A DNA stretch of 64,000 nucleotides, taken from Anagrus nilaparvatae. Taxonomy: Eukaryota > Arthropoda > Insecta > Hymenoptera > Mymaridae. The position numbers and the translations under genes were made by a program. Every line of letters begins with the position of its first letter. The first letter of the stretch is position 1. The stretch lies in the NCBI GenBank assembly GCA_022575985.1, contig JAKSXM010000139.1, positions 62,001 to 126,000 of the forward strand. The letters are read 5' to 3'. This document shows positions 11,584 through 59,116 of the stretch, piece by piece. The notes beneath the pieces were generated by a model. It was given only the letters and a program-made list of their open reading frames with translations, ran no database searches and had not been told where the DNA came from.

Positions 11584-11622
11584 TTTTCTCGAAAGAGAAA
11601 TGAGTTCTAAATGTTATAAATA
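11584..11622 (+). promoter_or_regulatory. snRNA-type promoter module, copy 1
   Basis: TTTCTCGAAAGAGAAATG is followed by TATAAATA at 11615, exactly 25 nt after the C of CG. This is one of the two copies with TATAAATA instead of TATATAAG. A transcript would start near 11645; no known RNA is recognised there. Confidence 0.5.
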
Positions 11623-13848
11623 GAAAGATTCGGTTTGCAGATAATTTCAAAAATTTGTTATATAAAATTATTAATTAATATTTTATCTCTAATTAACATG
11701 TAATATTTTTATTCTATTATAAATAAATAATTGAAAGTACGAGTTAGCTCATTTTTTTCTGCCTTTTAAAATTCTCTAGAATACTCTCGAGAATACTCTT
11801 CAATAGTATCAAATGTTGGGCAATACTTTTGCGCCTTTTTAGAACTTTTAAGATATTTCTTTTTAATAGAATTATTTAGTATATAAAAAAAATCAAGCCT
11901 TTCAAAAGATACCTGATGTCGAAAAAACATTTTGCAATTACAAATATAAAGCATTTTTTTTTAAACAAAACAATCTGAATTGAAAATATAAAAAAAAATT
12001 TAACAAAATTCGCAATCTTGACTCATGTACGTTAAAATTAAAATTTGTTCAAATATTAAATTTACACTAAATCTTGTACTTAAACTCGTAATCATGTCAG
12101 TGCATTAATACACGCGTATTCTCCCTTTTTTTGGTTATTCTTAGTATAATATACAACCTAATATTTCTAAATTTCTTATATTTTTGATGAGTACAGTCAC
12201 GAAAGAGGTAAAAAAATCGTCGGTGTGGCCTCGCATTATAAAAATTGTAATGAATGAACATCACTTTTTATTTTTATTTTTCTATTCTTTTATTTTTTTC
12301 ATTATTTAATTTTTATTGTCTGAAAACACATAATAAATGATTCTTGTTTTTCAAAAAAGTGAAATTTTTATTAAAAATTCTAAGAATTTAATCATTTTTT
12401 TCAATGTAAATTGTCATCTTTTTAGAATATATATGAAAGGATTAATAAATATTTTACTATTTTTTTTGAAATTTCTGAAAAGCAAAAATCTAAAGAACTA
12501 ACTTACTCACAAAAAAACATGACATTAAATTTTTATTTCAGAAATGATTGATGAAATAATTTCATACTAATAAAAAAAAATAATGACGTTAATTTTTTTT
12601 AATACCCCCAAAATTCATCATTTTTTTCTTCTTGTCAAAAAATTAATACCCAAGAAAAAAATATAAAAAAAAATTGTCTCTTACGTATATTTAAGCTTGA
12701 CTGCACATTTAACTGTAACGTATTATTAAATACTCTTAGAGTACTTAAAACCGTTAAAAAAAAGTAAAAACAGAAAAAATGCTCTCCTTTTCATTTATGG
12801 TCGGTATCTTACTTAAAAAGCTAACTACTCTTGTTATAATTTAGTATTACACATAATAATATCCAAGTTGATGATGATTTCTTTAAAAAAATATTTTTTA
12901 ATTTGATGAGTCACGGATATTTTTTTGTAAAAAAAAAAATTTTTTGATATTATATGCAATTATTTTCATTTAATAAAAATTTATAATTATTTTAGTATAC
13001 ATGAGATTGAAACAACTGATTTTTAGTTTCAGCTTTTTTTGGCTGTGTTACGCCCTATACTGTGTATAAATTTTTATTTTATAAAGGGTTATAAAATTAA
13101 GTTTAATGGATTTGTAAAAAAAATAACATGATATTATTTTATTTCAGGTTTACTTATGGCTATACTTTTTGTTTATTTTACAGATTATTTTTTATGGGTG
13201 CATTGCATTAAAATATTAAATTTTGAAAATATACGAAATACTAATATGAAATTCTGGACTGTTCTTGTTTTTCTTTGAAATTTAATTATTGAAACTGGTC
13301 TTTAAAAATTTAATAAACATAAATTTATTTATTTTATTTTAGTTTACATAGTTTTTGTGAATTTTTTAGTATGTACTTTTTTTATGGTGGATATTTTCAA
13401 CAATGTGGTATAGTTTGTGCCAAAAAATAAAGCATTTTCGTAAAAAATCAATTGTTTATGCAAAAATGTGTATTTTTATGGTTTTTTACTTGTAAAATCT
13501 TTATTTTTTGAGAAAAGTTAATAAAATTAAAAAGGCTGATACCTTGTAAAGAGCTTAAAAAAGCCATCCAAACCGATTTTTGAAATTATTATTTAAACAA
13601 AAGTTATAAGCAAATTAAACTCTTAAATTAACTTTTTAACTGTGAGAAGTAAAATACCCTGAATCGTTTCAAATTTTCTCAAATAATAATTTAAGTGTTG
13701 AAGAATAAATGGGCCAATTTGGAACAAAAAATTATTTAAATTTTTTTAGTTATTAGCAATTGAAAATAATATAATATGGGTTTGTGTTGTTTACAATTCA
13801 TTTATAAATATTTACATTAAAAATTTACTGCTCAATATTTCAAAAAAA
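11623..13848. other. AT-rich intergenic stretch
   Basis: No gene is recognised. Only short open frames and simple A/T runs are present. Confidence 0.35.
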
Positions 13849-13887
13849 TTTTCTCGAAAATGAAAAGGGATTGCAAGGGTATATAAG
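13849..13887 (+). promoter_or_regulatory. snRNA-type promoter module, copy 2
   Basis: TTTCTCGAAAATGAAAAGG precedes TATATAAG at 13880 with the 25-nt spacing. Its spacer (TTGCAAGGG) and the upstream TTTACTGCnCAATATTT match copy 3, so the two are recent paralogues. Confidence 0.6.
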
Positions 13888-14950
13888 TATGTACATAATG
13901 AATAAAGTAACCTAATTTTATTTTTAAAAAAATTGTTTGCTTCATTTATTTTTAATTAACTGTTTTGTTTAGTATTTCTTTGCGAGTAAATGTTTCTTTA
14001 GTAATGCCGATATGTTAGGAATCTGTTATCTTAATACTTAAGTATCTGTTACTCTAAAAACATAAGATAATCTTTTAATTTGAATTGAATTATTTATATT
14101 TTTATAAGTATATTAAAGATTTCTTTGGATCGAAGTAATGTCCGGCTACCATTAATATATTATACTATACCAATATATTTCATAACCCACTTTTTTTTTA
14201 GTTCCGTGGATAATTCGACTTGCTAAAGCCGAATGCGGGGTCTATTTCGAGCTGAAAGTGGCCAATTAATTGTGATTAAAAAATTATAGCAAATTGAGCC
14301 TAAAATTAAACAAAATTGAGTTATAAATGCTGATAAGCTTCAAAAATTTGTGAGTTAAGCAAAACTTTCTGATGTACTTTAACTTACAGTACATACATTT
14401 TCTAATACCTAATACTTTAGATTAATTGTTTATACAATTTTCAATTGTTTAAACTATTTGTAAATTTTATTTATTTTTTTTAATCAAATCACGTGCGAAA
14501 CTAAGTTACGTATATTTTTTTATACCCTGAAACTAGTCGTCTAATTATTATACAAAAACAAGTTGTAAAAAGAAGGATCAATAAATAAATTAAAATAAAT
14601 ATGTTTTGATTTAATTAATTAAAAATACCTTAATGCAAATTTAAAGCTCAATTTCACGAAAAATTAAATGGACGAATAATTTTTAATAATATACTGCGTA
14701 TACTTTTAAATATTTTTATGCCCTCTCGGGCGTAAAATTTGGCACGAAATTTTCTGCACTCGTTTTCTAGAATTCATATCATACATATTTTTGTACAAGG
14801 AATTTAAAAAAAAATTCAAAATGTTTGATTGTTCAAACAAATACGACATGATCATAAATGAATAAGGCCAAATATCTCAGTTTCAAAAAAAGGTTACGAT
14901 ACACTCAGTGCTCATAAGCTACCTTAAGTGCTTTATGAAATATTTGTGCT
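13888..14950. other. Intergenic stretch with dispersed-repeat fragments
   Basis: It contains a copy of a dispersed repeat around 14868-14910, shared with 57.58 kb, and a GCCCTCTCGGGCGTA hairpin-like stretch at 14721, shared in form with 59.17 kb. No gene is seen. Confidence 0.4.
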
Positions 14951-14994
14951 ATTAATAAATATAATGTATATGAGCAATTATTTTAAAATTCATA

Positions 14995-15944
14995 CACGTA
15001 AAAAAAATATAAGACAAACTGAACGTATTACGTAACTGAAATATGATTAGTATTGTAAGTTTGTTGAATGGAAAGATTAAACGTTGAATTGTCAAATAAA
15101 AACATTAGACCAACAAATACTTTGTTGATTCAAGCAAAATTAAAATCGTTAAGTTAACCACTTAAATCTTTGTTGAATCAACATAGTGTTAGATAAACCA
15201 ACAACCTACAACATTAATATGATAATTTTAATAGTTAGGTCAATGCTTTTTCTTTTATATTAAAATATTTATTCATTCTTTCTCTTTCTATCCTTTTATG
15301 TATTTAACACCGCGGCCGGCGACAAGTCGAAACCTGTTCTTCAGCAGCGCGCTTTTGTTTATATTATTATTCATTATTATTATAATAAAGAAATGGAATT
15401 TCCTAAAAATTATTTATGATAGTTTTAACTATTATTTTTAAATAATATGCATTTCGCTGGGTATGCATAATTTACTCTGCATATAATTTCGAAAATTATT
15501 ATCTGTAACATATAGTACTTAAAATTTTTTTATTAAATACAACTGTCCTGTTAGCAGAATGGATAATCACGCTGTCTCGGAAGCCGGCGGACTCAGTTCG
15601 ATCCCAGTAGCAGTCAAAATTTTTCTTCGGTTTTTTTTAACAGATTTTAAATTAATAAATATATAAGTACATAAATAAATATAAAAAAAATAATTAACAA
15701 AAAAAAAAAATTATTAATAAAAAAAAAATACCCTAAATAAATATAAAAAAAATAATTATCAAAAATAAATAATCAATAGAAAAAAAAAAAAAAAAAAAAA
15801 AAAAAATAATAAAAAAATAATTTTTTTTAAACAAAATTTTCACTCTGTTTGAATCAACTAAGTAACTATGACAATTCAACAAATACTTTGTTGGCATATT
15901 TCAACAAAGTTATTTGTCAATACAACTTAGAATTTTTTTCCGTG
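14995..15944. mobile_element. 950-bp MITE nested in the fold-back element, TA target duplication
   Basis: The ends read CACGTAAAAAAAATA and, inverted, CACGGAAAAAAATTC, flanked by TA on both sides. Removing the insert restores the fold-back arm exactly as the intact right arm has it (ATACTTAATTCG), which fixes the boundaries. Subterminal repeats share ACAAATACTTTGTTG. TA duplication and short TIRs suggest a Tc1/mariner-type MITE. Confidence 0.75.
15544..15612 (+). repeat. tRNA-like SINE head
   Basis: TTAGCAGAATGG (A-box-like) at 15551 and GTTCGATCC (exact B box) at 15597 are spaced as in a tRNA, within a GC-richer segment. The acceptor stem does not pair well, so this is a tRNA-derived repeat or decayed tRNA rather than a working gene. 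A-rich repeats follow (15660-15810), including a poly-A run of about 26 at 15781. Confidence 0.5.
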
Positions 15945-18313
15945 TACTTAATTCGAGCCTGGAATCGTAAATTTTTTTTTTGAGGGCACATCGATATGAC
16001 CCGTATTTTCAGATAGTTTAAACCTTCAGAAAACCGAAAAAAATCGTGAACAAGAAATCGGCGATAGGTGCCAAAAAGATTTTTTCACTTTTATGTCAAA
16101 AAACGTGTTTTTCGTATCTGAGCTACCCTAAATTTTCAAAATAACTTTTTAGGTAAAAAAACGTTTTTAAAATAGATAAGAAAATCTGATTGCCAGGGAA
16201 AAACCACTCCAGAAGAAAAAAAAACTTATCTTTTTCGGATGAAATTTAGCCAAGTTATCGTCAATTTAAGATTTTGCTCAAATTCGTCTTAAAAAAGATT
16301 GAAATTTTATTGAAAAAAGCCTGTTTCTGAACCTTAAACATGCATTATTCGCTTGATTTTCATCGTAAAATAATAATTTTTTTTTTAAAATCGATTAATT
16401 TTTTCCTGGCAATTCATTTCTCTAAGAAAAAAATTATTTTTATTGACAAAATTTTAATTTTTAGATCAAAAACTGTGTTAAGGGTCGTTTTACCTAAACT
16501 TTTTTTTTGATAATCGAATTTTTTTTTTCTGTTAATTACTTTATATAAGACTCAAGAGTATGTAAAAAAAATTTATTTTTAAATTCTCCCCCCTAAGTAT
16601 ATTTTTTGGCCTGTTTTGCGCGCACCGTCAAACGTACTTTTGATAAAATTTAACGGTATGGCTCTATTATTATCTTACATATCTTCTAACTATTGTTAAA
16701 TAGTTAGAAATTATGTCGGAACCGGTCACTGATAGAAATTATGAGCAAATTTAGCTAATATTCGCGATTGTTTATGACGCCAAATTTAGCCGTGCCAAAA
16801 TGGTAAAAAATAGCAAATCGGCCCAGCAGTAGGGGTAAAATCAGCTACAAGTTCAGTATGAAAACCGGAAGGATAACTTTATGGCTCCAAAATCACTAAT
16901 AACTTATAAGTATACTTAAATATACAAAAAAAAAATGTTTTGTTAAATTTCTACGAAAAAAAAATTTTTATTCTTATTTTGAAAACTATGTTTTTACACC
17001 TTCTAATTAAGATTTCTCTAAAACTACTCAACTGATTTTAATTTTTTTTGGTCTAATATATTTTTTGAAAGTTCCTTTACGTAATAAAAAAAAAACATTA
17101 ATAATTTAATAACTAAAAGTACCGAAAAAATTATTCCAAAACTTCAAAGTCGTTTTACTCGAAACAACGTCTATGAAAACCATGTACACGATTACGCGAT
17201 AACTTCTGCACCGATTTACTTTAAATTTACTAAGCAACTTAATAAATGCACTAATTTCGGGATGACGTCGAGTTTTTTTTTTTTATGTTCTCAAAAAATT
17301 TTTACAGCTGCTTTTGCCCAAAAATTATAGGCTTTTTTTTTTCATTTTAACTTTGTGTAGCCGCCATTTTGTTCCTAATTAATTTTTTTGAAAAAACTCG
17401 ACGTCATCCCAAAATTACGGGTTTTAAGTCTTACCAATTTTTTTTTTGTATGTTTTAGATTATCCTAAGTCAAGATATCCTGTACATAACTTTGGATTAT
17501 TTTTTTTCAGAGACGCAAATACACCCCTCTTACGCAAAAATGACGTCACAAAAAACAAAAAAAAATTTTTTTTTTTAATTATTAATATATTTCTAAACAA
17601 TAAAAAAAATTTTATTTAAATATCTCTATCCGTTATTTCACAATCCTACCTTGAAAATCAGCTAAAATATCGACATATTTAGGTAAAACGACCCTTAAGT
17701 AAATCTTGCAAGTAAATCTTGCTACTTACAGTTTTCAAAGGCTTTTGACCTAAAAATTGAAATTTGGTCAATAAAAATAATTTTTTTCTTAGAGAAATGA
17801 ATTGCCAGGAAAAAATTAATCGATTTTAAAAGAAAAATTATTATTTTACGATGAAAATCAAGCGAATAATGCATGTTTAAGGTTCAGAAACAGGCTTTTT
17901 TCAATAAAATTTCAATCTTTTTTAAGACGAATTTGAGCAAAATCTTAAATTGACGATAACTTGGCTAAATTTCATCCGAAAAAGATAAGTTTTTTTTTCT
18001 TCTGTAGTGGTTTTTCCCTGGCAATCAGATTTTCTTATCTATTTTAAAAACGTTTTTTTACCTAAAAAGTTATTTTGAAAATTTTGGGTAGCTTAGATAC
18101 GAAAAACACGGTTTTTGACATAAAAGTGAAAAAATCTTTTTGGCACCTATCGCCGATTTCTTGTTCACGATTTTTTTCGGTTTTCTGAAGGTTCAAACTA
18201 TCTGAAAACACGGGTCATATCGATGTGCCCTCAAAAAAAAAATTTACGATTCCAGAATCCAGGCTCGAATTAAGTATCAATTTTAAAATAATTGCTCATA
18301 TATACATTCTGAT

Positions 18314-18640
18314 TAATAATGAATTTTTGTCATCTGTCAACTATCAAACTTTTATTAATTAAATTATTGACGTGCAATTACATGATCCTTCGGATAGTGC
18401 CAATGGTCAATTAAAACAGAATCAACTCGACAAAAAAACTAACATTTTATTGCTGCATTATACAAGTGCTATTACCTTTATCAGTAAATAGTATCAGCAG
18501 AAATTATTTAAAATTAAAACTTATTATTAGCCTATAACAACTAACTTCGCATTCATGTATAAAATAAGCAAAATAATTCAAAAACATTATTCCAAGCTAC
18601 TTTAAGATTTCACTAGTTGTTCAGTATTTCAAATCATTTA
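18314..18640 (+). repeat. Duplicated non-coding segment, copy A
   Basis: It matches 19682-20000 at about 70-80% by eye. Shared stretches include AACTATCAA, the ATGGTCAAT block, AGTATCA(G/A)CAGAAAT, and GTATTTCAAATCAT at the end. Copy A abuts the fold-back element, which has separated it from any upstream promoter module. Confidence 0.65.
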
Positions 18641-19476
18641 CTACACTGTAAAAAATCTTGTCCGGATATTAGTGTAGGCAGTGACTAAAAAAAAAGTATT
18701 ACTGAAAAATCGCGGGCAAGGAATTTTCTATATTTACCTACACTAAAAAAAAATTCCGGTTGCGGCAACCAGAATTCCAGCTTTGAAAAATAAATTTACA
18801 ATTTTATCTGTAAAAATAGATGTTTTAAGAAGAGTAACTTAAATTTTTTATACTTTTCAAAAGTTAGTTAGTTAGTTAGTTAGAGGAGCAAGATATTATG
18901 CTCGAAATATAGGATTTTTAAAAATTAAATAAAAAAATATTTGTCTGGAAAAGGTCGTATTTCATTATCACAAACTTATCCATTAGACCAGAGGTTAAAA
19001 TTCAAAAATAAAGATTTATTGTATTAATTTATTCAAATCAATTTTGCAAAAAGGAATTAAATAAGTAAATTTTTAAATAATAAACAAAATTAATTTGCAA
19101 GGTAAATTTTTAAAAATTGTAAAAAATTTAAATCATCCTCCTCAAAAAGTTAATTTTGATGGACTGATTTGATATATTAGATCATTTTCATTTTACACTA
19201 ATTTTGACTTAAAAAAAAATCCGTTTGCCGAAAATGGAGATATTCTGTTTGTGGCAATCGTAATTTTTTTTCAGTGCTTAAAAACTATAATTTTTTTTAA
19301 ATGTAAACTTTTCACAAAAGGAATTTTATTGCCCAAATATTCATATATTTAAAAAATTTTCTTTTCAAAATTTAACTACATAATCATGAAAACTGGTGTT
19401 TAATTGTATAGTGCATAATATAATATAGTTTCCTGTTATTTACTAATAATTTACTGCACAATATTTTAAAGAAAAT
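18641..19476. other. Intergenic stretch with palindromic fragments
   Basis: It holds a (GTTA)n run at 18861-18883 and a GGTTGCGGCAACC palindrome at 18757 beside an ATTCCGG repeat. No gene is seen. Confidence 0.35.
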
Positions 19477-19515
19477 TTTTCTCGCAAGTGAAAAGGGGTT
19501 GCAAGGGTATATAAG
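19477..19515 (+). promoter_or_regulatory. snRNA-type promoter module, copy 3
   Basis: TTTCTCGCAAGTGAAAAGG is followed by TATATAAG at 19508 at the 25-nt spacing. The duplicated segment copy B begins about 170 nt downstream and could be transcribed from it. Confidence 0.65.
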
Positions 19516-19681
19516 TAGATGATTTATTGCGAAAAGCATTTAAATTTAAAATAAAAATATTTGCTTTATTCATTCTGAATTAAATGCTATTGCTTGTAAA
19601 CAAATGTAAATTATCAATGGAGATTTTTTTGGTATATTTTCATGCATCTATAATAAATTTGATATAAATATGAATTCGATT

Positions 19682-20000
19682 TAATTATGAATCTTCGTCA
19701 CCTATCAACTATCAAGTTGATATTTTGAGTCAAATTATCAATGTAGAATCAGTGATCCTTAGGTTTGTGCCTTCAATGGTCAATGAAAAATCGATTAAAG
19801 AAATTTAAAACTAATATTTTCTACTGCTTTATATATTATGCAGATGCACTTTTATGCCTTACAGTAAAAAGTATCAACAGAAATCATTTAAAATTAAAAC
19901 TAAGCCATAACTATACAGAATCTTGGCATTCTTGTATAAAATAAACAAAATAATTCAAAACCTTTGTTCTAGGCTAATTGGTTAGTATTTCAAATCATAA
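19682..20000 (+). repeat. Duplicated non-coding segment, copy B
   Basis: This is the partner of 18314-18640. It lies directly downstream of promoter module copy 3. No open reading frame is shared between the copies, so any product would be RNA. Confidence 0.65.
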
Positions 20001-23051: not shown

Positions 23052-23090
23052 CTTTTATATACTATAAAATACTTTTCTCTTGCGAGAAAG
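23052..23090 (-). promoter_or_regulatory. snRNA-type promoter module, copy 4 (minus strand)
   Basis: On the minus strand TTTCTCGCAAGAGAAAAG precedes TATAAAAG starting at 23059. The CG lies at 23084-23083, again 25 nt before the TATA box. It would transcribe towards lower coordinates. Confidence 0.5.
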
Positions 23091-24627: not shown

Positions 24628-24667
24628 TTTCTCCCGCAAGTGAAATGACTTTTTAAAAGTATATAAG
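24628..24667 (+). promoter_or_regulatory. snRNA-type promoter module, copy 5
   Basis: TTTCTCCCGCAAGTGAAATG precedes TATATAAG at 24660 with the 25-nt spacing. A T-run at about 24734, roughly 45 nt after the expected start, could end a short Pol III transcript. T-runs are common here, so that is weak. Confidence 0.65.
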
Positions 24668-25361: not shown

Positions 25362-25430
25362 TTTTATATACCTATAATAAATTTTACTTGCAAATATTTT
25401 TTCTTAATTGATTGTAGAATCTTTTCTGAT

Positions 25431-25469
25431 TTTTCTCGCAAGCGAAATGACTTTGTAAGACAATATAAG
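25431..25469 (+). promoter_or_regulatory. snRNA-type promoter module, copy 6
   Basis: TTTTCTCGCAAGCGAAATG precedes AATATAAG at 25462 with the 25-nt spacing. The downstream sequence (ATTAAAATTTATTAA, then TATACTTTA and GCGGTTAGAA) is homologous to that below copy 11. Confidence 0.6.
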
Positions 25470-25707: not shown

Positions 25708-28004
25708 ATATGGGTCAATATTTGTGAACTGTATATGACTTTGCATGGGCGGGTCTCGAAATGTACTCCAAAGTATGTTTGGTCGAAATTATATATAAAA
25801 AAAATAATTTTCCCCAATTTTTAGCTTTTTAGATTCAATCTTCTATTTTTTACAGCGATTTTTGTTTTTTTCAATTTTTTGAAATTTTTAATTTTTGAGA
25901 AATTTATGTTCCTTAATTTTTCTCGCAAACGCGCACTTTACAATAAAATTTTTTTTCCTTATAGCACCCCATAGGAAATTTCCCGTAGAATTCGATTCTG
26001 GGGTCCAAATTTTTTTTTGAATTGCGCATGCGCGAGAAAATCAACTTTCTTGCTTTGCCTTTTCTAGCTTATATGCCACAGCTGCAGACAGCTCAATTTT
26101 CATCCTGTTGGTCTCAAATTGTAGGTTTTTTCATATACTTTCAGCATATGAAATCATTTTTTTGGGTAAATTTATTTTAAAAGCACTAAAATTGAAAAAT
26201 AGCGATTTTTAAAAAATCATTTTTCACAAATTTTGAATTTTCTGCCAAGTCACGTGACCAAATGAAAATCTGACTGAAAATTCGGATTCAGCGGAAAATT
26301 CTACATAAGGATACCAATTTTCGTCTTATTTCATTAAATAGTTTCTAAGATATCCCATTTTAAAAATAAAGATTAAAATTGACTTTTTTTAAAAAACCCT
26401 AAAAATGGGACTCTGACTTTAATTATCATATCTGCTAAACAAATAATTATAAAAAGACGAGTAAAAATTTTTTGGAAACTAAGGGCTTGTAAAAAATTTT
26501 TGAGGCCTATAGAACTCGTTTCTTTTAAAAATTAGAATTTTGGCAGCAATTTCAAAATTGGTCATTTTTGGGTAAGAATAGGGATTTGGTTTATTGACTA
26601 TCGCCATGAGAGAATTAACAACAAATAAATGTGGTGTACGATAAATAAATGTTGATACGTATACCGAAAAAATGAGACCAATGGAAAGTATTTTGGTTAG
26701 CTGGCGAGGGTTGCAGCTTTCTATTAAAGATTATGAAAAAAATCCTATTTTATAACATTGTCGTATTTTGTAGCTATTCTATCTTATTTTCAATATTCCG
26801 AATTTTCTAGTTACATAATGAAAATTTTGACGAAATTTTCGAATTCCTCGAGAAATTTTACAAAAGACCCCCTTTTTGGAAAAGTTTGGATGTTTCCGTA
26901 ACGCTATAGAAATAAAAGAAATAGCAAAATACTAAATAACTACAAAATACCACAATGTTATCAAATAGGATTTTTTTCATAATCTTTAATAGAAAGCTGC
27001 AACCTCGCCAGCTAACCAAAATACTTTCCATTGGTCTCATTTTTCGGTATACGTATCAACATTTATTTACCGTACACCACATTTATTTGTTGTTAATTCT
27101 CTCATGGCGATAGTCAATAAACCAAATCCCTATTCTTACCCAAAAATGACCAATTTTGAAATTGCTACCAAAATTCTAATTTTTAAAAGAAACGAGTTCT
27201 ATAGGCCTCAAAAATTTTTTACAAGCCCTTAGTTTCCAAAAAATTTTTACTCGTCTTTTTATAATTATTTGTTTAGCAGATATGATAATTAAAGTCAGAG
27301 TCCCATTTTTTAGGGTTTTTTAAAAAAAGTCAATTTTAATCTTTATTTTTAAAATGGGATATCTTAGAAACTATTTAATGAAATAAGACGAAAATTGGTA
27401 TCCTTATGTAGAATTTTCCGCTGAATCCGAATTTTCAGTCAGATTTTCATTTGGTCACGTGACTTGGCAGAAAATTCAAAATTTGTGAAAAATGATTTTT
27501 TAAAAATCGCTATTTTTCAATTTTAGTGCTTTTAAAATAAATTTACCCAAAAAAATGATTTCATATGCTGAAAGTATATGAAAAAACCTACAATTTGAGA
27601 CCAACAGGATGAAAATTGAGCTGTCTGCAGCTGTGGCATATAAGCTAGAAAAGGCAAAGCAAGAAAGTTGATTTTCTCGCGCATGCGCAGTTCAAAAAAA
27701 AATTTGGACCCCAGAAATCGAATTCTACGGGAAATTTCCTATGGGGTGCTATAAGGAAAAAAAATTTTATTGTAAAGTGCGCGTTTGCGAGAAAAATTAA
27801 GGAACATAAATTTCTCAAAAATTAAAAATTTCAAAAAATTGAAAAAAACAAAAATCGCTGTAAAAAATAGAGGATTGGATCTAAAAAGCTAAAAATTGGG
27901 GAAAATTATTTTTTTTATATATGCTTTCGAGCAAACATACTTTGGAGTACATTCTGAGACTCGAAAATCCAAACTATATACACTTCACAAATATTGACCC
28001 ATAT
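25708..28004. mobile_element. 2.3-kb near-perfect palindromic (fold-back) element
   Basis: Arms of about 1.07 kb (25708-26780 and 26932-28004) mirror each other around 26856. ATATGGGTCAATATTTGTGA at the left end faces its complement at the right end. GAGACCAATGGAAAGTATTT at 26671 faces AAATACTTTCCATTGGTCTC ending at 27041. The arms are about 95% complementary, so the element is fairly young. There is no transposase frame, and the short open frames inside are mirror-image artefacts. It sits within the promoter-module array, between copies 6 and 7. No clear target duplication is visible. Confidence 0.85.
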
Positions 28005-28484: not shown

Positions 28485-28523
28485 TTTTCTCGAAATTGAA
28501 ATTACTTTCTAAAAGTATATAAG
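28485..28523 (+). promoter_or_regulatory. snRNA-type promoter module, copy 7
   Basis: TTTTCTCGAAATTGAAATTAC precedes TATATAAG at 28516 with the 25-nt spacing. Its distal element at 28335 (CAATTGCTTAATTTAAAG) is diverged. Confidence 0.6.
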
Positions 28524-29816: not shown

Positions 29817-29855
29817 TTCTCCCGCAAGTGAAATGATTTTGTAAAAGTATATAAG
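29817..29855 (+). promoter_or_regulatory. snRNA-type promoter module, copy 8
   Basis: TTTCTCCCGCAAGTGAAATG precedes TATATAAG at 29848 with the 25-nt spacing. It is almost identical to copy 5 across the module and into the downstream TAAATTTTATAATTTTAAA. Confidence 0.65.
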
Positions 29856-30463: not shown

Positions 30464-30502
30464 TTTTCTCGCAAGCAAAACGTCTTCGGGAAACTATATA
30501 AG
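30464..30502 (+). promoter_or_regulatory. snRNA-type promoter module, copy 9
   Basis: TTTTCTCGCAAGCAAAACG precedes TATATAAG at 30495 with the 25-nt spacing. Its distal element is at 30305. It is the last plus-strand copy of the cluster. Confidence 0.6.
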
Positions 30503-34404: not shown

Positions 34405-35251
34405 AATTTTGGGGAACCCTCCGGGATTGCAACATCTTACTTGTAGGATGGTTAGGGCCAAGACGACGTTGGTGAACTAGTGAAGAATAAAGTGAAGTAA
34501 AGTGAAGTAAAGTAAAGTGAGTGACAGAGAGGTTCCTAGATTATATAAAAGATTTCAAGGCGGCGAATTCTTATCCTTGGCTGTGGCACAGTTGTACCTT
34601 GGAGGAGGTATACAGGAATTTCAAAAGGACATTGGCGGTCCGAAAGAGGTTAGTCACGAAAACTGCAAGAGGCGTTATCGTGCAAGAGGTATACGGTTTT
34701 GCAGGTGGCAAATACCGTATCATAGAGAAGAGATTCCTGAAGGACAAGTCTTCTAGAGGACGAAGTCTTATCCTTGGCTGTCGTGCAGCGGTGCCTTGCA
34801 GGAGGTACCTAGGAGCATTTGCACTGGACACAGGCGGTCCAAGAAGACGAGTTTACAGAAGGAGTTCTGTAAGTACGACGATACCTTGGAGGAGGTACTT
34901 AAGGTGTAACTACTAAGGATACAGGCGGTCCAAAGAAGTTGCATTTACGGAAGGAGTTCTGCGAGTACAAGAAAGAAGATTTTAATTGTCGCAGGCGGTG
35001 AAAATCACGGTAGAAGAAACAGGTGTCCGGTATACGCAGGCGGCGTTTACCATAAAGAAGAGCGTAATTGTCGAAGAACTGCAGGCGGCAGTTGCTAAGA
35101 AGAAAATTTCAATTTTCTCAGGCAGCGACTTTTGTGACAGTAGAATCCAGCGATCGCAAGAGGCGGTTACCAAAAGAGAAGGACACGAAGATTTTTGCAA
35201 ATTTTAACTGTTAAAAATACGAGAGCAAGCCGGTTAAGGTAATTGTAAAAT

Positions 35252-36121
35252 ATGACTAGAGAAAAACTTAGTGAGTTTCAGGCTAAGCTTGATCAGATAA
35301 TGAGCCAAATAGAAGCACTGAAGGCGGAGAACCAGATGCTGAAGGAGCAGCAATTGGCGTTATCAGTTTCTAGGAGCAGAGAAACGACTCCGAGTTCGCA
35401 ATCATTGGAGCAAAGGGTGTATCAGCCTCCTATACTATTAAGGGATGCGGCGGATTCACTTCCGAAATTTTGTGGAAACGATCCAGCAAAACCAGTCCAT
35501 GAGTGGACCAGAGTGCTGCAAAATAAAATTATCGCTTTTCAATGGACGGAACTAGAAGGATATTTGGCGGCAAGCGGAGCCCTAGAAGGCGCAGCAAAGA
35601 AGTGGGCAGAAAGTCATTCGGAGATCAATACATGGGCCGATTTAAAAGCTGGTCTTGAACGAGAATTTAAGTCAAGGACATCACCAGCGCAAATTTATGA
35701 GAAGATAGCAGCAAGGCGGCGCAAAAAGGACGAAAATCCTGTGGATTATTTGCATGGTATGAAGGCTCTTGGGCGTCAGGCGAACATGGAAGAGAGAGAT
35801 ATTCTGCGTTACGTCATAAAGGGCATCACGGACGATGAGAAGACAAAACTCATGCTGTATTCCGTTCGAAACTTTGAGGAGCTGCGAGATCGCTTAGATT
35901 TTATTGGAGATGCACTTACTGCACCTAAAGAATGTAAAAATAAAAATGACGATAAAAATAACGAAAAAGTTGCAGGTGCGCAGAAGGTTAAACAATGTTA
36001 CAACTGTGGAGACGATGGTCATGAAAGCTTAGACTGTCCAGATAAGGAGAAAGGTGTAAAGTGCTACAGTTGCGGAGAATTTGGGCATATCTCAACTACG
36101 TGTCCAGAGATGCAAAATTAA
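35252..36121 (+). CDS. gag: Retrotransposon Gag polyprotein with two zinc knuckles
   Basis: This 289-residue capsid/nucleocapsid protein would package element RNA. Residues 1-35 form a short coiled coil (EFQAKLDQIMSQIEALKAEN). Residues ~70-200 match the retrotransposon Gag core (GAAKKWAESH, then the EREFKSRTS and PVDYLHGM blocks). Two CCHC knuckles close the protein: CYNCGDDGHESLDC and CYSCGEFGHISTTC. The frame is intact from ATG 35252 to TAA at 36119. No pol frame overlaps or follows. Codon use is less AT-rich than the surroundings, as expected of a recent arrival. Upstream frames in the leader (34517-34916) arise from its repeats and I do not call them genes. Confidence 0.93.
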   Translation: MTREKLSEFQAKLDQIMSQIEALKAENQMLKEQQLALSVSRSRETTPSSQSLEQRVYQPPILLRDAADSLPKFCGNDPAKPVHEWTRVLQNKIIAFQWTELEGYLAASGALEGAAKKWAESHSEINTWADLKAGLEREFKSRTSPAQIYEKIAARRRKKDENPVDYLHGMKALGRQANMEERDILRYVIKGITDDEKTKLMLYSVRNFEELRDRLDFIGDALTAPKECKNKNDDKNNEKVAGAQKVKQCYNCGDDGHESLDCPDKEKGVKCYSCGEFGHISTTCPEMQN

Positions 36122-39003: not shown

Positions 39004-39042
39004 ATTATATACCTTTAGAAAATCATTTTACTTTCGAGAAAA
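39004..39042 (-). promoter_or_regulatory. snRNA-type promoter module, copy 10 (minus strand)
   Basis: On the minus strand TTTCTCGAAAGTAAAATG precedes TATATAAT starting at 39011 with the 25-nt spacing. A distal element resembling the others, followed by AAATTTTATTTGCAAATAT, lies upstream near 39160-39205. Confidence 0.55.
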
Positions 39043-40710: not shown

Positions 40711-40749
40711 ATTATATAGTCTTAAAAAGTCATTTCACTTGCGAGAAAA
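40711..40749 (-). promoter_or_regulatory. snRNA-type promoter module, copy 11 (minus strand)
   Basis: On the minus strand TTTCTCGCAAGTGAAATG precedes TATATAAT starting at 40718 with the 25-nt spacing. The distal element lies at 40852-40872. The Ginger-like element starts about 170 nt downstream, so a transcript would run into it. Confidence 0.65.
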
Positions 40750-41296: not shown

Positions 41297-41335
41297 CTTA
41301 TATACTTTTAAAAACTCATTCCACTTGCGAGAGAA
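41297..41335 (-). promoter_or_regulatory. snRNA-type promoter module, copy 12 (minus strand)
   Basis: On the minus strand TTTCTCTCGCAAGTGGAATG precedes TATATAAG starting at 41304 with the 25-nt spacing. Confidence 0.62.
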
Positions 41336-46620: not shown

Positions 46621-46624
<4 letters not shown>

Positions 46625-51100: not shown

Positions 51101-51104
51101 AAAA

Positions 51105-51122
51105 ACAACTGTGTATAAAAAC
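51105..51122 (+). promoter_or_regulatory. Possible TATA box with adjacent E-box upstream of the asense-like gene
   Basis: CAACTG (an E-box) lies 4 nt before TATAAAAA at about 51115. Autoregulation through E-boxes is known for fly proneural genes. The distance to the ATG (about 870 nt) would imply a long leader or a leader intron. Confidence 0.25.
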
Positions 51123-51980
51123 AGGCTTTATCTTATTATAAAATAAATCCATCTCTTTTTATTTATTATTTTCTACATAAGTTCGTCTTCATTTAATGGC
51201 GCGCGCACTTATATATATATGTATATTTATATGTATGTGTATTATACATAATTTATACTAAAACATGCGCGAGCAATAAACGAAAATAAGCCGGTAGACG
51301 CTGAAATTTAAACCATCCGGCAACCGGCATCAGTCAGAAATTTATTCCCCAACTCATTTCATTCTCCACGCGGATACCATAAGGAACGTAATAATATTAT
51401 AATAACGTGCGTGTTCTTGTTTTTTTGGTTCACACAACATAGTTTTTTTATTTTTTACATATTATGCTTGTATGTATATATTCAAATAATGTGTGTACAT
51501 AAAAAAATGACATAGCTACCACTTTTTTTATTTTTTAACACAAGAGTTAGTTTTAGAGTTTTTGGTACGTTGGTTAATTACGTATCAACTGTGAAAAAAA
51601 TAACTGAGTTTAAAGTGGTGACAGTGAAAATAATAACAAAAAAAGTATATTGTTTTTTGTTATACTTTTATACCTACAAAAATTTTCTTGTATACTTTTA
51701 AATGCGTATATTTCTTTTGAATTTTTAAATTTATCGAAGGCTATTTAAATATAGCCAATAATATTAGACGGAGCTTTATATATTTAAATTATTTATTTCT
51801 ATTTATGTGGTTCTAATAATAAAAATTAAATTCTACAAATTTTATTATTAAAAAAGTGCTGTGTTTTTAATTTATTAAAAAGTGACTATAAATAAAAGTG
51901 TTTTTATACATTTTATTTCTAATGAATAAGTTTAAAAAAATAAAATCAATGAAAAATATAATTAAAATTTTAGCCCTAAA

Positions 51981-54862
51981 ATGACTAGAATGGGCGTAAC
52001 ATTATTTTGTAATCGTGTTGATAATAATAATGAAAGTGAACAATTAATGTTACTAAGAACACTTAAAGATAACGATAGAAATATTATTGAAAATCGTCAT
52101 AATTTTGATTTAGAACAAGAAAATAAAAAAATTAAAAAAATGCCACAAGGAAGAAAAAATTCTCAGAATCAACAAAATAATATAACAACATATGATTCAA
52201 CAAGATTAAAAAAGCATGGAAAAAATGGTCAACCACCACCAGTAGCTGTTGCCCGAAGAAATGCTAGAGAAAGAAATCGGGTAAAACAAGTAAATAACGG
52301 TTTTGCAACATTAAGATCTCACATACCAAATCATGTTGCACAAAGTTATGGTGACAGAGGTAAAAAATTATCCAAAGTTGAAACGTTAAGAATGGCTGTG
52401 GAATATATCAGAGGTTTACAAAGATTGTTATCTGAAGCTGATGGTTTAGATTATGACAGTAATTCAAACACTGGTGTATTAAATGAATCTATTCCATCAC
52501 CAACTGACAGTTCTTATTCAATTAGTACAACACATAATGGTTCAGCTAATGGTGGAGATGTCATGTGTTTGACAGGAGAATTTGATGAACATCAATCAAT
52601 ACAAGAGGAAGCAAATGTTATTGCGGATGAAGAGGATGGTGATTCTTACCTTATGGAAGAAGAAGATGAAGAACTTGAAAAAGACAGAAGGGAGAAACGT
52701 TTCCGGGAGAATTCTGGAACGAACAATCGGTATGCATATGTTCCTTTTAGAGTTGTTACCTTTTTTTTTTTCATTTCTTTATTTTTTTGTATTATTATTT
52801 GGTTATTATTGATAGAAATGGGAGGATTTTTGTATGAAACAAAGGATGTATAGGGTTATATTTATTGATTATTTCCTTCTTCTTTTGACGTAATAAAAGT
52901 TTTTTGCGATGTTTGGAAGTATATAATATGTAGAATTAGTACTTTCAGGTTTGCAAGATGGATTAATTGAATGAAATGTCTTGTATTACGGATATGTCCA
53001 CCAAACTTGAAAACAAAAGAATAAACATATCAACAAAAGGGTTAATAATATTGCAAAAAAATTACAAATGACATAAATTTAATCTACAAAATTTAGTAGA
53101 AAGGTTAAGTCGAGGGTTTAGTTAAACAATACTTATTTCCTGGAAAAATAACTTGATGGATAAATTATGTTGTTGAAAAGTCAATATTAATTAAAATTTT
53201 GACTAACCTATTATTAGCATGTCTCAAGCAGCTCGGACCGGTCCCTATACTAAGAGCCGCCCAGCTTCGATCTCAATTATTATGTACTTCAGTTCAACTA
53301 TTGTGTAACCCAAAATATTCACGCCAGATACTCTTCTTATCGCCCTTTTTATTGTAATAGAATATAAGAATATTTAAGTTTAGCAAAATCTCCCGCTCGC
53401 ATAATTTAATATTGCATAACTTAACGAAATTATAGGTAATACTCTAGTTAAATCTGGGTTAAGGATTTTGCTAATTTAAGGGTGAAATATTAATTTTTCA
53501 TTCAAAAATCCCTGAAATTCGTGATCAGCGACCCAAAAAACCCATAGGACCAAATCTAAACTCAAAGTGCTAATGTAGTTTTTGCATATTTAAGGGTGTT
53601 TAACCAATTTCTTCCGAAAAAGACCTCAAAATTCGTGATCAGCGACCCCAAAATCTACTTTAGTAAACCAAACCTCATGACGGCCAGTAACTGAGCACCC
53701 CCCCCCCCCCCCCACGAGCTGACTGCAGTATAAATTATGTATTGAAACCAAGAAAATAATGAAATATAATTGTTAAAATTAAAGGATATACTTGAGTTAG
53801 AAACCTGGTTATACCTGAAATTGAAACTAACGTTTACATAACGTATATAATTATGTTAATTTTTTCTAGTTTATTTTATTTTTTGCATATAATTTCTATA
53901 CTTAAATTATCAAATTTCATTTGCAAAAAGTACAGGAACTTTCAAGGAAAAAAATTTCTGATAAAATACACAGAAAGTGCACATAAGATTGCTCTGCTCG
54001 TTGTTCTGTTTAAATTACGTTAAATTATCAAATAAAGCCTTTAAATTATTTTAATTACTTGAAAATTTAAACAAAATTTTAGAGCAAATCGACAGTGTAT
54101 ATTAAAAAAAAAAATTATAAAATTTGTTTCTTTTGTCAGGGCTATCACATATTATAATTAAGTCATTTAACATGTTTTAAATATTACCTATTACAGTCGA
54201 CACAAAAACTAAAGTTTATTTTTTTCAACAGACTTTCTGAGAATCAAAAAAGGGAGAAAAATCCTTTGGCAGCCGTACGTCGAAGATGCAATTCGCCCAC
54301 AAATTACTACAACCAAAGACAAATATCTATTGGCGATGAAGAAAATATTGAACCCAGTGCAAATTCTCACAATAATAATAATAATACAAACAATAATAAC
54401 AATAATATTTTAACACAATACCCAGCATCAATAATAATGCATTCCTCACCACCAAATTCGTTAATCGTAAAACGCGAAATATGCCCACAAATTGAAGATG
54501 ATAGTTTATGTAACACACAACAAAGTGGTGCATTAAGGTCACCAAGTTACGAATTAAATGAAACTCATCATCATCAAGACACATCGCGTTTAATTAACAT
54601 AAAATTAGAAGAAACAGCAAATGAAACATCAGCTGAAGATGTATCGTTAATGGAACATCAGGATAATAGTCCTTCTGTTCATCATCATCAATTCGTTTAT
54701 TTAGCAAGTCCAGAAACAATACCAACTGGTGGCCAAATTTATTATAAACAAGATATTGTCGGCGAAAGCAATGAATTCCTTGACTACGTCAGCTGGTTTG
54801 ACGAACAAGGTAGATTAGCACATTTAGGACCAACACATGTTCAACGAATGGCACATGTTTGA
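51981..54862 (+). CDS. ase: Achaete-scute family bHLH transcription factor, asense-like
   Basis: This nuclear factor would pair with Daughterless and bind E-boxes to promote neural precursor fate. Exons are 51981-52729 and 54232-54862. The 1.5-kb intron starts GTATGC and ends CAACAG. It splits an Arg codon in phase 2, giving about 459 residues. The bHLH domain spans residues ~91-155: basic region [17 protein letters not shown], a short loop SYGDRGKK, then [18 protein letters not shown]. Acidic runs and Asn/His-rich repeats follow. Near the end, [13 protein letters not shown] resembles the conserved C-terminal motif of this family (fly Asense LLDYISSWQEQ). Short KRE/KLEE acidic-basic motifs are also asense-like. 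Unusual is a tail of about 15 residues after that motif. Asense rather than scute is my judgement; family membership is certain. Confidence 0.9.
52730..54231 (+). other. Intron of the asense-like gene
   Basis: The 1502-bp intron has a GTATGC donor and a pyrimidine-rich TTTTTTTCAACAG acceptor. Reading through the donor adds a hydrophobic tail and a stop at 52851-52853, so retention would give a truncated protein that keeps the bHLH domain. Inside are a poly-C run at about 53698-53713 and two copies of ATTCGTGATCAGCGACCC (near 53518 and 53632). Confidence 0.8.
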
Positions 54863-55270
54863 CGTGTGTAGCGGCCGGTACTCGCAGACACGAGGTAATT
54901 TTAAAATATAGTAAAATAGCTGTTTTTTTTTGTGATTCTTTTGTTAGTTCTTTACTTTCGATATTTAAATACCATAATTTTTATGCTTTAAAATTTTTTT
55001 TTATGGATATTTTTGGATGCTGTATTGAAAATAATTGAAACATAAAATCTGTTCTTTTGTTTTTCATTTTGAAAATTAGATTTAAGATTATGGAAATTTG
55101 GTGCTTTAGAAAAATAATTCCCACGTGTTCTTAAATAATCTTATCTTTGATGTATTTATTTATTTTTTAAATTAAATTAAATTAAAAAAACAAAATATTT
55201 AAAAAAAATTTCTTCAAAAACAAAAATTTTACTTATTTTTTACCGTTAAAAAATAAAAAATATCAATAAA
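54863..55270 (+). promoter_or_regulatory. Probable 3' UTR of the asense-like gene
   Basis: AATAAA at 55265-55270 is the first good poly(A) signal. TGTGAT at 54933-54938 is the K-box core, known in fly proneural and E(spl) 3' UTRs as a microRNA target. A single hexamer could occur by chance. Confidence 0.4.
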
Positions 55271-58200
55271 AGCATAAAAAAAATCTATGACAAAAAAAAA
55301 ATTTTTTTTCTTCTTCAATGGATCATAAAATAAATATTTTTAATATAATATAAAAAAATTAATATTTTTTTATTGATCTGTTTTCTTCTTAAAAATTCTT
55401 TTAAAAATTAAAAAACAAGTTTTATCACATAAAATACAACCAAAATTTTTATTGTACTAAATTTTTAAGAAATTAAAGCCATGAAAAAAAAAACAATGGT
55501 TGACTAAAAAAAATTTCTAAGAAAAATTAATGATATTTTCCAATCTATGAAATATGATTTTTAAACCACAAGAATATTCTTTTTTAATTAAAAAAAAGTA
55601 GCTATTCATTATTGATTATTCAAGAAGTAGCTTGTAGTAAAATACAATAGAATCATAATTATGTTCGATTACGTGTATTATTGTATCTATTTTTTAGAAA
55701 ATCAATAATTTAATGGTTACTCAACTTAATACAATTTTTATTCATTAAGTTTATTGTTTTTCTAGTAGCTTTTGTTTTAATTTTTTATTTTTATGTTAAT
55801 TTTATATTTTTATGCTGTTACCTGTTTGATTCAGAGATATGATAATATAGAGTACATAATTATAGGGGGATTTGGATTCTTGTTTTGGTTTTTGTCAAAT
55901 TTTAGTACTTAACATTAAGAATCAGAGTTTTTTGGAATAATTTTGAGTTATTTAGCTCATACTTGGAATAAAGCTACTGTTATTTTGTTGTGTCTGCTCA
56001 CGCATATAAAAAATTAGTATATAAACCAAAATAACAATTTTGTTTACTAAGTTTAGTGTGGCTAAAAGTCACTATAAATTTTTAGTAAAATTTACTAATA
56101 AAATTGTTTATAAAACTAAAACCTCAATTTATTTAGTAGAATTTACTATTTTTTTGGTTATATTTACCAATATTTATTCATTTCTGTTTACTAAATTCCG
56201 ACCTAAATTCGTTTAGGCTAATTTTACTATTCTTTTTTTTGCGTGCAAGCTGATAAAAAAAATTGGGCAGTTGAATACCTGCGCGAGTAATATACCTGCT
56301 CGTTTTGCTTTGATTTTGGGTAACAAGGTTCGTCATAAGAACTGGAATTAATTTTACAAATTATTAGCATAAATTTTTATTGATCATTTTTATGAGTTAT
56401 TGTGAATTTATAAAATCGTTTATAATAATAAAATTAATATCTGACAAGTTTAATTCAATACCCCCAATAAATAAAATTACACACTGGGCGCAGATACCAA
56501 AAAATCTTTTTGTTCACAACTTTAATTTGCATATGAAACGTTCCTAAGACGTTTTGTGCTACCTATATAAACATCTGAATATTTCTTCATTTTTGATATT
56601 ATTATCATTATTGCTAAAACTAAATTTTTTTTTCTCAGATACTCAGATAATAATTTTTTCCACACTAAAGCCATCCCTAAAACCAATACAAACAAATATT
56701 TTAAAATCTAAACTTGACAAAAAAATACGTTGCATTAAATTGCGAGGGAAAATCAATTTTTATATTTTTACAATATATAAACTTTTATAAACCGTTAAAC
56801 TGTCATTTTCTGTGTATCTAACAACAACAAGGAAAAAAAAATCTTTTGAATTAACACCATATTCATGTGCATTTCTTGAGTACCCTTCGTATTATATGAA
56901 AACTGTCATGTGAGTAAAAAAAAATAATAATGAAAAGAAAAATATATATCATACTTACTTACTGTCCTTTAAAGGTACTCCCATATAAAAAATGAAAAAA
57001 GATAGCTAAAATAAAGTATAGAGTATTTGTACTTTGTAGAAACATTTGTGCACTTAAAATTTTTGAATGCATGCGTATAGTCTGTCTTATGGTCTGTCTC
57101 GTATGATAAAAAACATTCAAACATTTTAAGATTTCTTAATTGTATATAAACTTGGTCCAAAACTGAAATATCAACTGAAAGCTCATTTTAAAGATTTAAA
57201 AACTTTTTAAATTACTTTAGGAACTTGTAATTATAAACGATTGGTAAATTTTAAACTGGTTAATTATTTATAAAATAAAAGCTAAAAACGTTCAAAATTT
57301 TATAAACAAATGGCTATAACTCACGATAAAAAAGGTTTTCTCAACAATTTTCCCACGGCTTTTCCAGCTGAAATTGGATGCTCTTCAATGTGAGCCGGGC
57401 AGAATTTTGATCCAAGCCGCCCAGGCCTGGAACTCTTTGGCTTTACTAATTGCTTAAAAGCCACACATTTTAATATGTTGAATTTGTTTAAATAATTCAT
57501 TTTTTTTCATTTTCTTGTTCAAAAATGCACATAAAACTTCAACTTTTTTTGGATACATTTTTATGCATGAAAATGGCTAAATATCTCAGTTTCAAAAAAA
57601 GGGCTACGATACACTCAGAGCCAACTCAATGCCACCTTAAAACAGTTACTTTGTTTTTTTTCTTTATATAACTTAATAAGAATTTCACCTTTTTTAGTTA
57701 ACTTATTAATGCTCAAAAATTAATGCTCATTTCGAGTCCAGTCCAAAAAAGTTACAAAATTCTATTTTTTCAATTTTTATAGTTTACACAGAAAATTTTT
57801 ATTTTAATAAGAATTTAAACTCAATTTATCATACACATTTAAGCATATAATTCATAGGGTCCAAACCATGCCCAATCTTTAAGTAAATTGATAAACCAGA
57901 AAATTAAAAAAAAATAATAATTAGGCTGAAAAAAGTCAATTTTAAAGCATTCAAAAGACATCTGAGTTGTATCCTAAACTAATTTATCGTCTCGCACTTA
58001 ACAATTTATTTTTTTAATGGTTTTAATTTTAGAATTGATAGTGTAGAATTCCAAGAAAAACAATGCATTAAAAAATAATGAAACAGTACTTTTAAAAAAA
58101 ATTTTATTTATTAACCTACTTGAACCATATGTGGTTTTATTGTAAATAAAAAGTGGTTTTTCATTTCCAAATTTCATTAAAATTCGATATTTTTATTAAA

Positions 58201-59077
58201 AAATAAAATACTTTACCGTTAAAAATGGAAGTGGTTTTATCCGTAACGGAAGGACTCTGGGAAGGACATTAAAACATATTTTCTAACTTGGATATAATAA
58301 AAATAAAATTTATTTAAAAAAAAATTAAAATATAAAATTTTTACCACTTGGTCTACTATCCCTGCGGGTGTTCTACTTGTGCATTTTCACATAATAATTA
58401 AACCTACCAATATGATATAAATTACGTACACGATACCCGTTAAAGAAACATGAATATACATAAATATTAAAATAATGTTATACATTAAATTTTTTTTGCA
58501 TGTGTTGGACATACCATTGGCCACGTGGCTATTACATTATTTTTAGTTGTTAAAAATTTTTTTTTAAAATTAGTTTCATCTCTCTTACACTTATTAATTT
58601 TTTTATAACACATAATTTATACATTACGTACCTACATTTACAAACTATATTGATTGCACTTGTACTTAAAAAACATGGGAGGTTATATACACCGGAAGTG
58701 GTCCAGTGCGTACCATGTGTTACAGGAAGTAACAAACGTATATTGTACATATTTATTGTTTTTTTTCATGAGAATTCAATTCCTTTTTTTGTTATTTACT
58801 GGGTTTTTTAATTTATTTTTTTTTTTTCGATTAACGAAATTAGGTTTAAGTCAAAAATAGAAATTTTTTAGAGGGGTGATAGATTTTGATGTTAATATAT
58901 GGTATACAGGTGAATTTAGGGGAAAAATTTAGGTTATGATTTTTGTAACCTCATAATAAATAACATGGGTAAAGTTTTGAGATTATTCCATTGATATTTT
59001 TTTATTTTTATCACGATACTCTTTAAAAATGTGCATATTTTTTATTCTAATTTACTTTATACTCGAAAGCAACATTT
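55271..59077. other. AT-rich intergenic stretch
   Basis: No supported gene. It contains the second copy of a dispersed repeat (57574-57620, shared with 14.87 kb) and a GC-richer fragment at 57350-57440. Confidence 0.35.
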
Positions 59078-59116
59078 TTTTCTCGTAATTGAAATCACCA
59101 AGTCAGATTATAAATA
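59078..59116 (+). promoter_or_regulatory. snRNA-type promoter module, copy 13
   Basis: TTTCTCGTAATTGAAATCAC precedes TATAAATA at 59109 with the 25-nt spacing. It is isolated from the main cluster and closest in form to copy 1. A strong hairpin lies about 80 nt downstream of the expected start. Confidence 0.5.

What the first reader, a model, noticed from the sequence alone, without database searches (positions are those of the whole stretch)
11584..59116. Thirteen bipartite promoter modules with an invariant 25-nt spacing
A CTCGCAAGTGAAA-type element is followed by TATATAAG, TATAAATA or a close variant at 13 places: + at 11584, 13849, 19477, 24628, 25431, 28485, 29817, 30464 and 59078; - at 23052, 39004, 40711 and 41297. 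In all 13 the CG of the element starts exactly 25 nt before the TATA box, although the spacer sequence varies widely. Taking a 21-bp element starting 8 nt before the CG leaves a 12-nt gap to TATA, the known geometry of Drosophila U6 promoters (PSEA plus TATA). Rigid spacing under sequence drift suggests selection on promoter function. No U6, 7SK or other known RNA follows, so the cluster may drive undescribed small RNAs.
Basis: partly seen in the sequence, partly recalled or inferred. Interest (0 to 1): 0.88.

Follow-up and report, generated by a model that had tools for sequence, protein, structure and literature searches.

The report
Thousands of stand-alone snRNA-type promoters
This insect genome, probably a wasp's, holds more than 6,000 close matches to a short two-part promoter built like the one in front of its own U2 splicing-RNA genes, 13 of them in this window, and each likely drives a short non-coding RNA of unknown job, an arrangement that recalls the thousands of one-promoter piRNA genes of nematode worms.

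Summary
All 13 modules are present; ten simulated windows gave none. In 12 of 13 the spacing is unambiguous; 23052(-) has overlapping TATA boxes at +23 and +25. The element is not special to this window: the exact 16-mer TCTCGCAAGTGAAATG occurs 1,001 times in the 489-Mb genome, the whole module 6,225 times with up to 3 mismatches; reversed controls give 0 and 1. Of 100 places listed by the 16-mer alone, 80 have TATAWAW at exactly CG+25. Flanks are mostly unrelated, so it is not a transposon. The module matches the genome's own U2 promoters (9 of 9 scored: CG at -55, AATATAAGG-type box at +25); U6 has a similar core but a spacing of 29. No known RNA or long ORF follows. Listed places cluster in chromosome domains; tandem neighbours 130-184 bp apart imply short products. 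Best explanation: SNAPc/Pol II units making short non-coding RNAs, working like nematode motif-dependent piRNA loci. No RNA data were available; transcription and Piwi loading are untested.

The parts
11584..11622 (+). module: PSEA-like element and TATAAATA; predicted RNA start about 11645
   Evidence: start by analogy with U2 (CG+55)
13849..13887 (+). module, TATATAAG; duplicate of 19477; predicted RNA start about 13910
19477..19515 (+). module, TATATAAG; predicted RNA start about 19538
24629..24667 (+). module, TATATAAG; duplicate of 29817; predicted RNA start about 24690
25431..25469 (+). module, AATATAAG as in most of the U2 genes scored; predicted RNA start about 25492
28485..28523 (+). 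module, TATATAAG; duplicate of 39004; predicted RNA start about 28546
29817..29855 (+). module, TATATAAG; predicted RNA start about 29878
30464..30502 (+). module, TATATAAG, 647 bp after the previous one on the same strand; predicted RNA start about 30525
59078..59116 (+). weakest and isolated module, TATAAATA (5 mismatches to the genome pattern); predicted RNA start about 59139
23052..23090 (-). module with overlapping boxes TATATAAA (+23) and TATAAAAG (+25); predicted RNA start about 23029
39004..39042 (-). module, TATATAAT; predicted RNA start about 38981
40711..40749 (-). module with the exact genome 16-mer, TATATAAT; predicted RNA start about 40688
41297..41335 (-). module, TATATAAG; predicted RNA start about 41274

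Best explanation
The 13 modules match, in element and in spacing, the two-part promoter that stands in front of this genome's own U2 snRNA genes, and each is predicted to recruit SNAPc, TBP and RNA polymerase II to start one short, separate non-coding RNA about 55 nt after the CG. Shown: the sequence match and spacing shared with the U2 promoters, over 6,000 matches genome-wide, mostly unrelated flanks, clustering of the listed places, and absence of known RNAs or long ORFs in the loci examined. Inferred: SNAPc binding (from the match to snRNA promoters), choice of Pol II over Pol III (from the U2-type rather than U6-type spacing), a start at CG+55 (from U2), and short products (from tandem neighbours 130-184 bp apart and an AT-rich stretch after the start in some of the sets). 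Speculative: that the products are loaded into Piwi as in nematodes.
For: U2 match: in 9 of 9 U2 upstreams scored the best match to the full module model lies at CG -55 (shuffle p at most 0.007), with a box AATATAAGG (6), AATATAAAG (2) or AATAAAAGG (1) read at +25. Own U6: the same core best at -60 in 9 of 10, TATA at +29. Literature: Pol II snRNA promoters have an 8-bp gap and U6 a 12-bp gap in Drosophila (PMC4227766 passages). Numbers: 1,001 exact 16-mers, control 0; 6,225 modules with up to 3 mismatches, control 1. Spacing: +25 in 80 of 100 places, +24 zero. Flanks: similarity in 13 of 1,770 upstream and 7 of 1,770 downstream pairs of 60 loci. Ten paralogous pairs: identity 0.93 and 0.97 in the two boxes, 0.77-0.87 elsewhere. 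ORFs downstream in 60 loci: median 25.5 codons sense, 24.5 antisense. Clustering on C1: 97 of the first 100 places lie in 21.2-36.4 Mb; 8 gaps under 1 kb within that domain against 0.6 expected. GC drops to 0.146 at CG+62..+80 in 42 genome loci (0.263 at +150..+390, p 3e-7), and is low in the 13 window modules too.
Against: No transcript, ChIP or small-RNA data exist here. Only U2 and U6 were compared; U1, U4 and U5 were not reached. Both sets contain near-identical copies, so the 9 U2 and 10 U6 genes are only about four independent cases each (my grouping by eye). In 3 of the 9 U2 genes (the near-identical L080-L082) a box shift of +2 scores slightly higher than 0 (2.3 against 0.4). The modules' second box is more TATA-like than U2's. 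There is no clear initiator at CG+55; YR at +56 is only slightly raised (24 of 66, p 0.014, uncorrected). The GC dip is weak in 19 places chosen by the 16-mer alone (0.216 at +62..+80, 0.19-0.21 further on). PSEA similarity to U6 is modest gene by gene (shuffle p 0.01 to 0.33). 17 of 100 16-mer places lack a TATAWAW box.
Confidence: 0.66

Rival explanations
1. The modules are Pol III type 3 promoters like U6, making small Pol III RNAs that end at T runs.
For: A true TATA box follows a PSEA-like element, and hymenopteran telomerase RNA is a precedent for extra type 3 genes (PMC9841428 passages).
Against: Spacing is 25 as in U2, not 29 as in the genome's own U6 genes. Starts of TTTT runs show no clear peak and no cleared body downstream.
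Confidence: 0.14
2. The modules are SNAPc/TBP sites with no useful product: decoys, or relics of snRNA-gene duplications that keep only the promoter.
For: Nothing recognisable follows the promoter in the loci examined; thousands of copies exist.
Against: Relics would not keep both boxes and the spacing in unrelated flanks, nor show higher identity in the boxes than in flanks in old duplicates (six of the ten pairs were chosen by a pattern covering part of the promoter). No snRNA remnant was found in the 20 of 47 loci scanned.
Confidence: 0.1
3. A mobile or repeated element carries the promoter.
For: Thousands of dispersed copies; a few pairs share long flanks (for example L049/L066 and L051/L067).
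Against: Only 13 and 7 of 1,770 pairs share flanks. Two viral-contig matches have other spacings.
Confidence: 0.04
4. The modules are ordinary Pol II promoters of short secreted or other small proteins.
For: A TATA box about 30 nt before the predicted start.
Against: Downstream ORFs are no longer than antisense or upstream ones. Some tandem modules are 130-184 bp apart, which leaves little room.
Confidence: 0.06

Closest known systems
Insect Pol II snRNA promoters (PSEA plus PSEB; U1, U2, U4, U5)
   Same: Element, spacing and, by prediction, distance to the start match the genome's own U2 genes.
   Different: No snRNA follows in the loci examined; the second box is usually a full TATA; over 6,000 matches instead of tens.
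Nematode type I (Ruby-motif) piRNA loci
   Same: Thousands of single-promoter units whose motif derives from snRNA/SNAPc promoters, clustered in chromosome domains in some species, each making one short RNA (here predicted) (PMC6436959 passages).
   Different: Other phylum; the module keeps the complete two-part promoter with TATA. The nematode low-melting stretch is scored at +20 to +40 after the start; here the dip begins about 7 nt after the predicted start and is weak in one set. Products unknown.
U6 and other Pol III type 3 promoters
   Same: PSEA-like core and TATA.
   Different: Spacing 29, not 25, in this genome.
Human and mouse PSE/TATA-dependent transcriptome
   Same: snRNA-like promoters outside known genes (PMC3472747, PMC3509611: search listing and start of abstract only).
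   Different: Described there as Pol III units; size and clustering not compared here.

Membership tests
Pol II snRNA-type promoter | PSEA matching the species' own Pol II snRNA genes | tested here: met
   9 of 9 U2 genes scored, best match at CG -55
Pol II snRNA-type promoter | Second box at the Pol II spacing | tested here: met
   U2 box read at +25, modules at +25 in 80 of 100; in 3 of 9 U2 genes a +2 shift scores slightly higher
Pol II snRNA-type promoter | SNAPc and Pol II occupancy | not testable with these tools
   no ChIP data
Pol II snRNA-type promoter | Same features in U1, U4 and U5 of this genome | not tested
   U5 search unanswered; U1 and U4 not asked
snRNA gene (U1 to U6, 7SK) | Known snRNA downstream | tested here: not met
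   no Rfam family at a module in the window or in 20 of 47 other loci
Pol III type 3 (U6-like) promoter | PSEA-TATA spacing of the species' own U6 | tested here: not met
   29 in U6, 25 in modules
Pol III type 3 (U6-like) promoter | T-run terminator at the end of a short body | tested here: inconclusive
   no clear peak of TTTT starts in an AT-rich background
Nematode-type motif-dependent piRNA locus | snRNA-derived promoter at thousands of loci, clustered | tested here: met
   clustering seen in the listed places only
Nematode-type motif-dependent piRNA locus | Low-melting stretch about 20 to 40 nt after the start | tested here: inconclusive
   dip at CG+62..+80, earlier than in worms; weak in the 16-mer-only set
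Nematode-type motif-dependent piRNA locus | Capped precursor of about 28 nt and Piwi-bound RNA with 5' U | not testable with these tools
   no RNA data; no position with fixed T downstream
Transposon family | Shared sequence beyond the promoter | tested here: not met
   13 and 7 of 1,770 pairs

The most novel reading that the evidence does not exclude
This insect independently evolved a worm-like system in which thousands of one-promoter genes, built by co-opting the U2-type SNAPc/Pol II promoter, each make one short capped RNA that feeds a Piwi or other Argonaute pathway, outside the long-cluster piRNA precursors known in arthropods.
Probability: 0.3. Interest if true: 0.96.

Novelty: new variant of a known kind. 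Interest (0 to 1): 0.86.

Why it matters
Arthropod piRNAs are described as products of long precursors, while nematodes make theirs from thousands of single SNAPc-derived promoters (PMC6436959 passages). Thousands of intact snRNA-type promoters in an insect would mean that co-option of the snRNA machinery for mass production of small RNAs happened more than once, or that a large class of insect short RNAs has been missed. It gives a simple prediction: RNA 5' ends at CG+55. Eight literature searches in the held open-access library (capped lists of titles and abstract starts) listed no paper that I recognised as describing such a system in insects. One paper does say that in most insect genomes thousands of PSE-starting sequences with a telomerase-template-like region could be predicted (PMC9841428, passage), so PSE-like sequences in large numbers have been met before, as candidates for telomerase RNA.

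Tried and rejected
Rejected: U6-type Pol III geometry (own U6 genes have spacing 29). Rejected: transposon family (flanks unrelated). Rejected: viral origin (2 IMG/VR matches with other spacings, +21 and +24). Rejected: protein-coding targets (ORF lengths as in antisense). Led nowhere: a fixed T or initiator position downstream, T-run terminators, k-mers enriched downstream (the top words are AT-rich). Not reached: U5 (RF00020) and a SNAPc-subunit search (PF12251), both unanswered; U1, U4 and Piwi searches were planned but never sent.

Limits of my sets: the pattern forced TATA at CG+23, so none of the window's 13 modules is in it. For composition counts I dropped 5 of those 47 loci (L047, L048, L051, L066, L067: no proper box, or duplicates), leaving 42. 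L107 was cut short by my own region error and left out, so 19 of 20 were counted; there the strict box at +25 in 14 of 19 is my count by eye. Of 27 U2 matches I fetched 13 upstreams and scored the 9 best; L089-L092, upstream of U2-like copies with a different 5' region, were not scored. Six of the ten paralogous pairs were chosen by a pattern that includes part of the promoter, which favours conservation there. Lists of genome places are capped at the first 100; totals are whole.

Full report
What is there. All 13 modules exist as described. Counting from the C of the invariant CG, the consensus of 66 loci from -6 on is TTTTCTCGCAAGTGAAATGAnTTTnnaAGTATATATAA (column counts for 55 loci). The spacing is 25 nt in 12 of 13; at 23052(-) overlapping boxes allow 23 or 25. 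In 256 kb of the 276-kb host contig there are no others above threshold, and 12 of the 13 lie in 29.7 kb, upstream of an achaete-scute bHLH gene (51981-54862 +). The best-named relatives of that protein are hymenopteran (Trichomalopsis sarcophagae, 57% identity), so the organism is probably a wasp. Some window modules are old local duplicates.

More than chance, and genome-wide. The genome (488.7 Mb, 393 contigs) holds 1,001 exact copies of the 16-mer TCTCGCAAGTGAAATG (488 + and 513 -), the reversed pattern none. The complete module with up to 3 mismatches occurs 6,225 times, the reversed control once. Only 11 of the 13 window modules fall within 3 mismatches, so the true number is probably higher. 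Spacing was tested without asking for it: of the first 100 listed 16-mer places, 83 have TATAWAW somewhere in +15..+37, and in 80 this includes +25; 2 have it only at +23, 1 only at +30, 17 have none. GTATATAA with the box at +24 has no match (a spacing I had set wrongly and which serves as an off-by-one control). Of 20 places fetched from that list, 19 were readable; 14 have a strict box at +25. In the other fetched loci, a scan with the upstream element alone found 11 new elements, all 11 with a TATA-like box at +25.

Not a transposon, not coding. With the module masked, only 13 of 1,770 upstream pairs and 7 of 1,770 downstream pairs among 60 loci show similarity. In ten paralogous pairs the two boxes are the most conserved parts (0.93 and 0.97 identity against 0.77-0.87 elsewhere), with the caveat that six pairs were chosen by a pattern covering part of the promoter. 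Downstream ORFs are no longer than antisense ones (median 25.5 and 24.5 codons). Rfam finds no known RNA at a module in the window (three matches below the curated cut-off, at 8380, 9572 and 57434, none at a module), and none in 20 of the 47 other loci except one far below its cut-off and 1.4 kb away from the module.

Which promoter. The genome's 10 U6 genes carry a similar core at -60 in 9 of 10, with TATA 29 nt after the CG. U2 genes carry it too: in 9 of 9 scored, the best match to the full module model lies at CG -55, and the second box (AATATAAGG in 6, AATATAAAG in 2, AATAAAAGG in 1) starts at +25. In three near-identical copies (L080-L082) a box shift of +2 scores slightly higher. Many of these U2 and U6 genes are near-identical copies, so they are not all independent. 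L084 and L085 read GTCGCAAAAGAAATG, box AATATAAGG. So the modules share element and spacing with the Pol II U2 genes, not with the Pol III U6 genes. In Drosophila, Pol II snRNA promoters have an 8-bp gap and U6 a 12-bp gap, the same 4-nt difference; there the PSEB or TATA box affects efficiency but not the choice of polymerase (PMC4227766, passages). Assigning Pol II here is therefore an inference from spacing and likeness to U2, not a proof.

What it makes. By analogy with U2, RNA would start near CG+55. Among the first 100 listed places, tandem neighbours lie 130, 184 and 390 bp apart and convergent ones 292 and 733 bp, so at least these products must be short or run through the next unit; divergent pairs lie 99, 123, 140 and 213 bp apart, which limits nothing, and in the 99- and 123-bp pairs one partner lacks a TATAWAW box. 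In 42 genome loci (all with a box at +23) GC falls to 0.146 at CG+62..+80, against 0.263 at +150..+390 (p 3e-7); the 13 window modules agree (0.108-0.154), 11 new ones partly (0.177 against 0.248), and 19 places chosen by the 16-mer alone show only a general drop after +62 (0.19-0.22 against 0.28-0.30 before) with no separate valley. No fixed 5' T and no clear initiator appears, and T runs show no clear terminator pattern.

Where they lie. On contig C1, 97 of the first 100 16-mer places lie between 21.2 and 36.4 Mb and 3 before that (the list stops at 36.4 Mb by its own limit); inside that domain 8 gaps are under 1 kb where 0.6 would be expected. So the listed modules form chromosome-scale domains and local clusters; the other contigs were not examined for this.

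Known precedents. Nematode type I piRNAs come from thousands of single units whose upstream motif descends from the snRNA/SNAPc motif, in clusters or dispersed, with a low-melting stretch that helps release short precursors (PMC6436959, passages). The present modules work like this in outline: a SNAPc-type promoter, thousands of copies, clustering, an AT-rich stretch after the predicted start in most sets. They differ in phylum, in keeping a full TATA, and in the position of the AT-rich stretch; the RNA itself is unknown. Membership is therefore not claimed. Hymenopteran telomerase RNA shows that this insect order has recruited snRNA-type promoters before (PMC9841428, passages). Eight searches of the held library, with capped lists, showed me no such system in insects, though one of these papers mentions thousands of predicted PSE-starting sequences in insect genomes.

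Verdict. The best reading is a U2-type SNAPc/Pol II promoter used at thousands of stand-alone short-RNA loci. What the RNAs do is the open question, and one small-RNA dataset would go far to answer it.

Noticed in passing
window 25740-27973: Long nearly perfect inverted repeat (arms 25996-26405 and 27307-27716, 410 nt, 100% complementary; outer arms 93%, inner arms 94%) between modules 25431 and 28485; could fold into a long hairpin RNA or be a recent palindromic duplication.
   Followed up: partly
window 226-4371 (-): Reading frames, of which two match Pfam DNA_pol_B_2 and Endonuclease_7, as in Maverick/Polinton-like elements (label recalled).
   Followed up: no
window 35249-36121 (+): Retrotransposon gag-like ORF with zinc knuckle (Pfam Retrotrans_gag, zf-CCHC) in a GC-richer stretch.
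   Followed up: no
window 51981-54862 (+): Achaete-scute bHLH gene, apparently in at least two exons (second exon recognised by eye), next to the module cluster; whether the cluster regulates it is untested.
   Followed up: partly
L089-L092: U2-like matches with a different, GC-rich upstream and 5' region: possibly diverged U2-like RNAs or pseudogenes.
   Followed up: no
L095, L103: Both modules are followed by the palindromic word GGTTCCTCAnAGAGGAACC, possibly a repeat inserted downstream.
   Followed up: no
window 4835-5221: Tandem array of a 71-bp unit, 5.5 copies, 97% matches.
   Followed up: no
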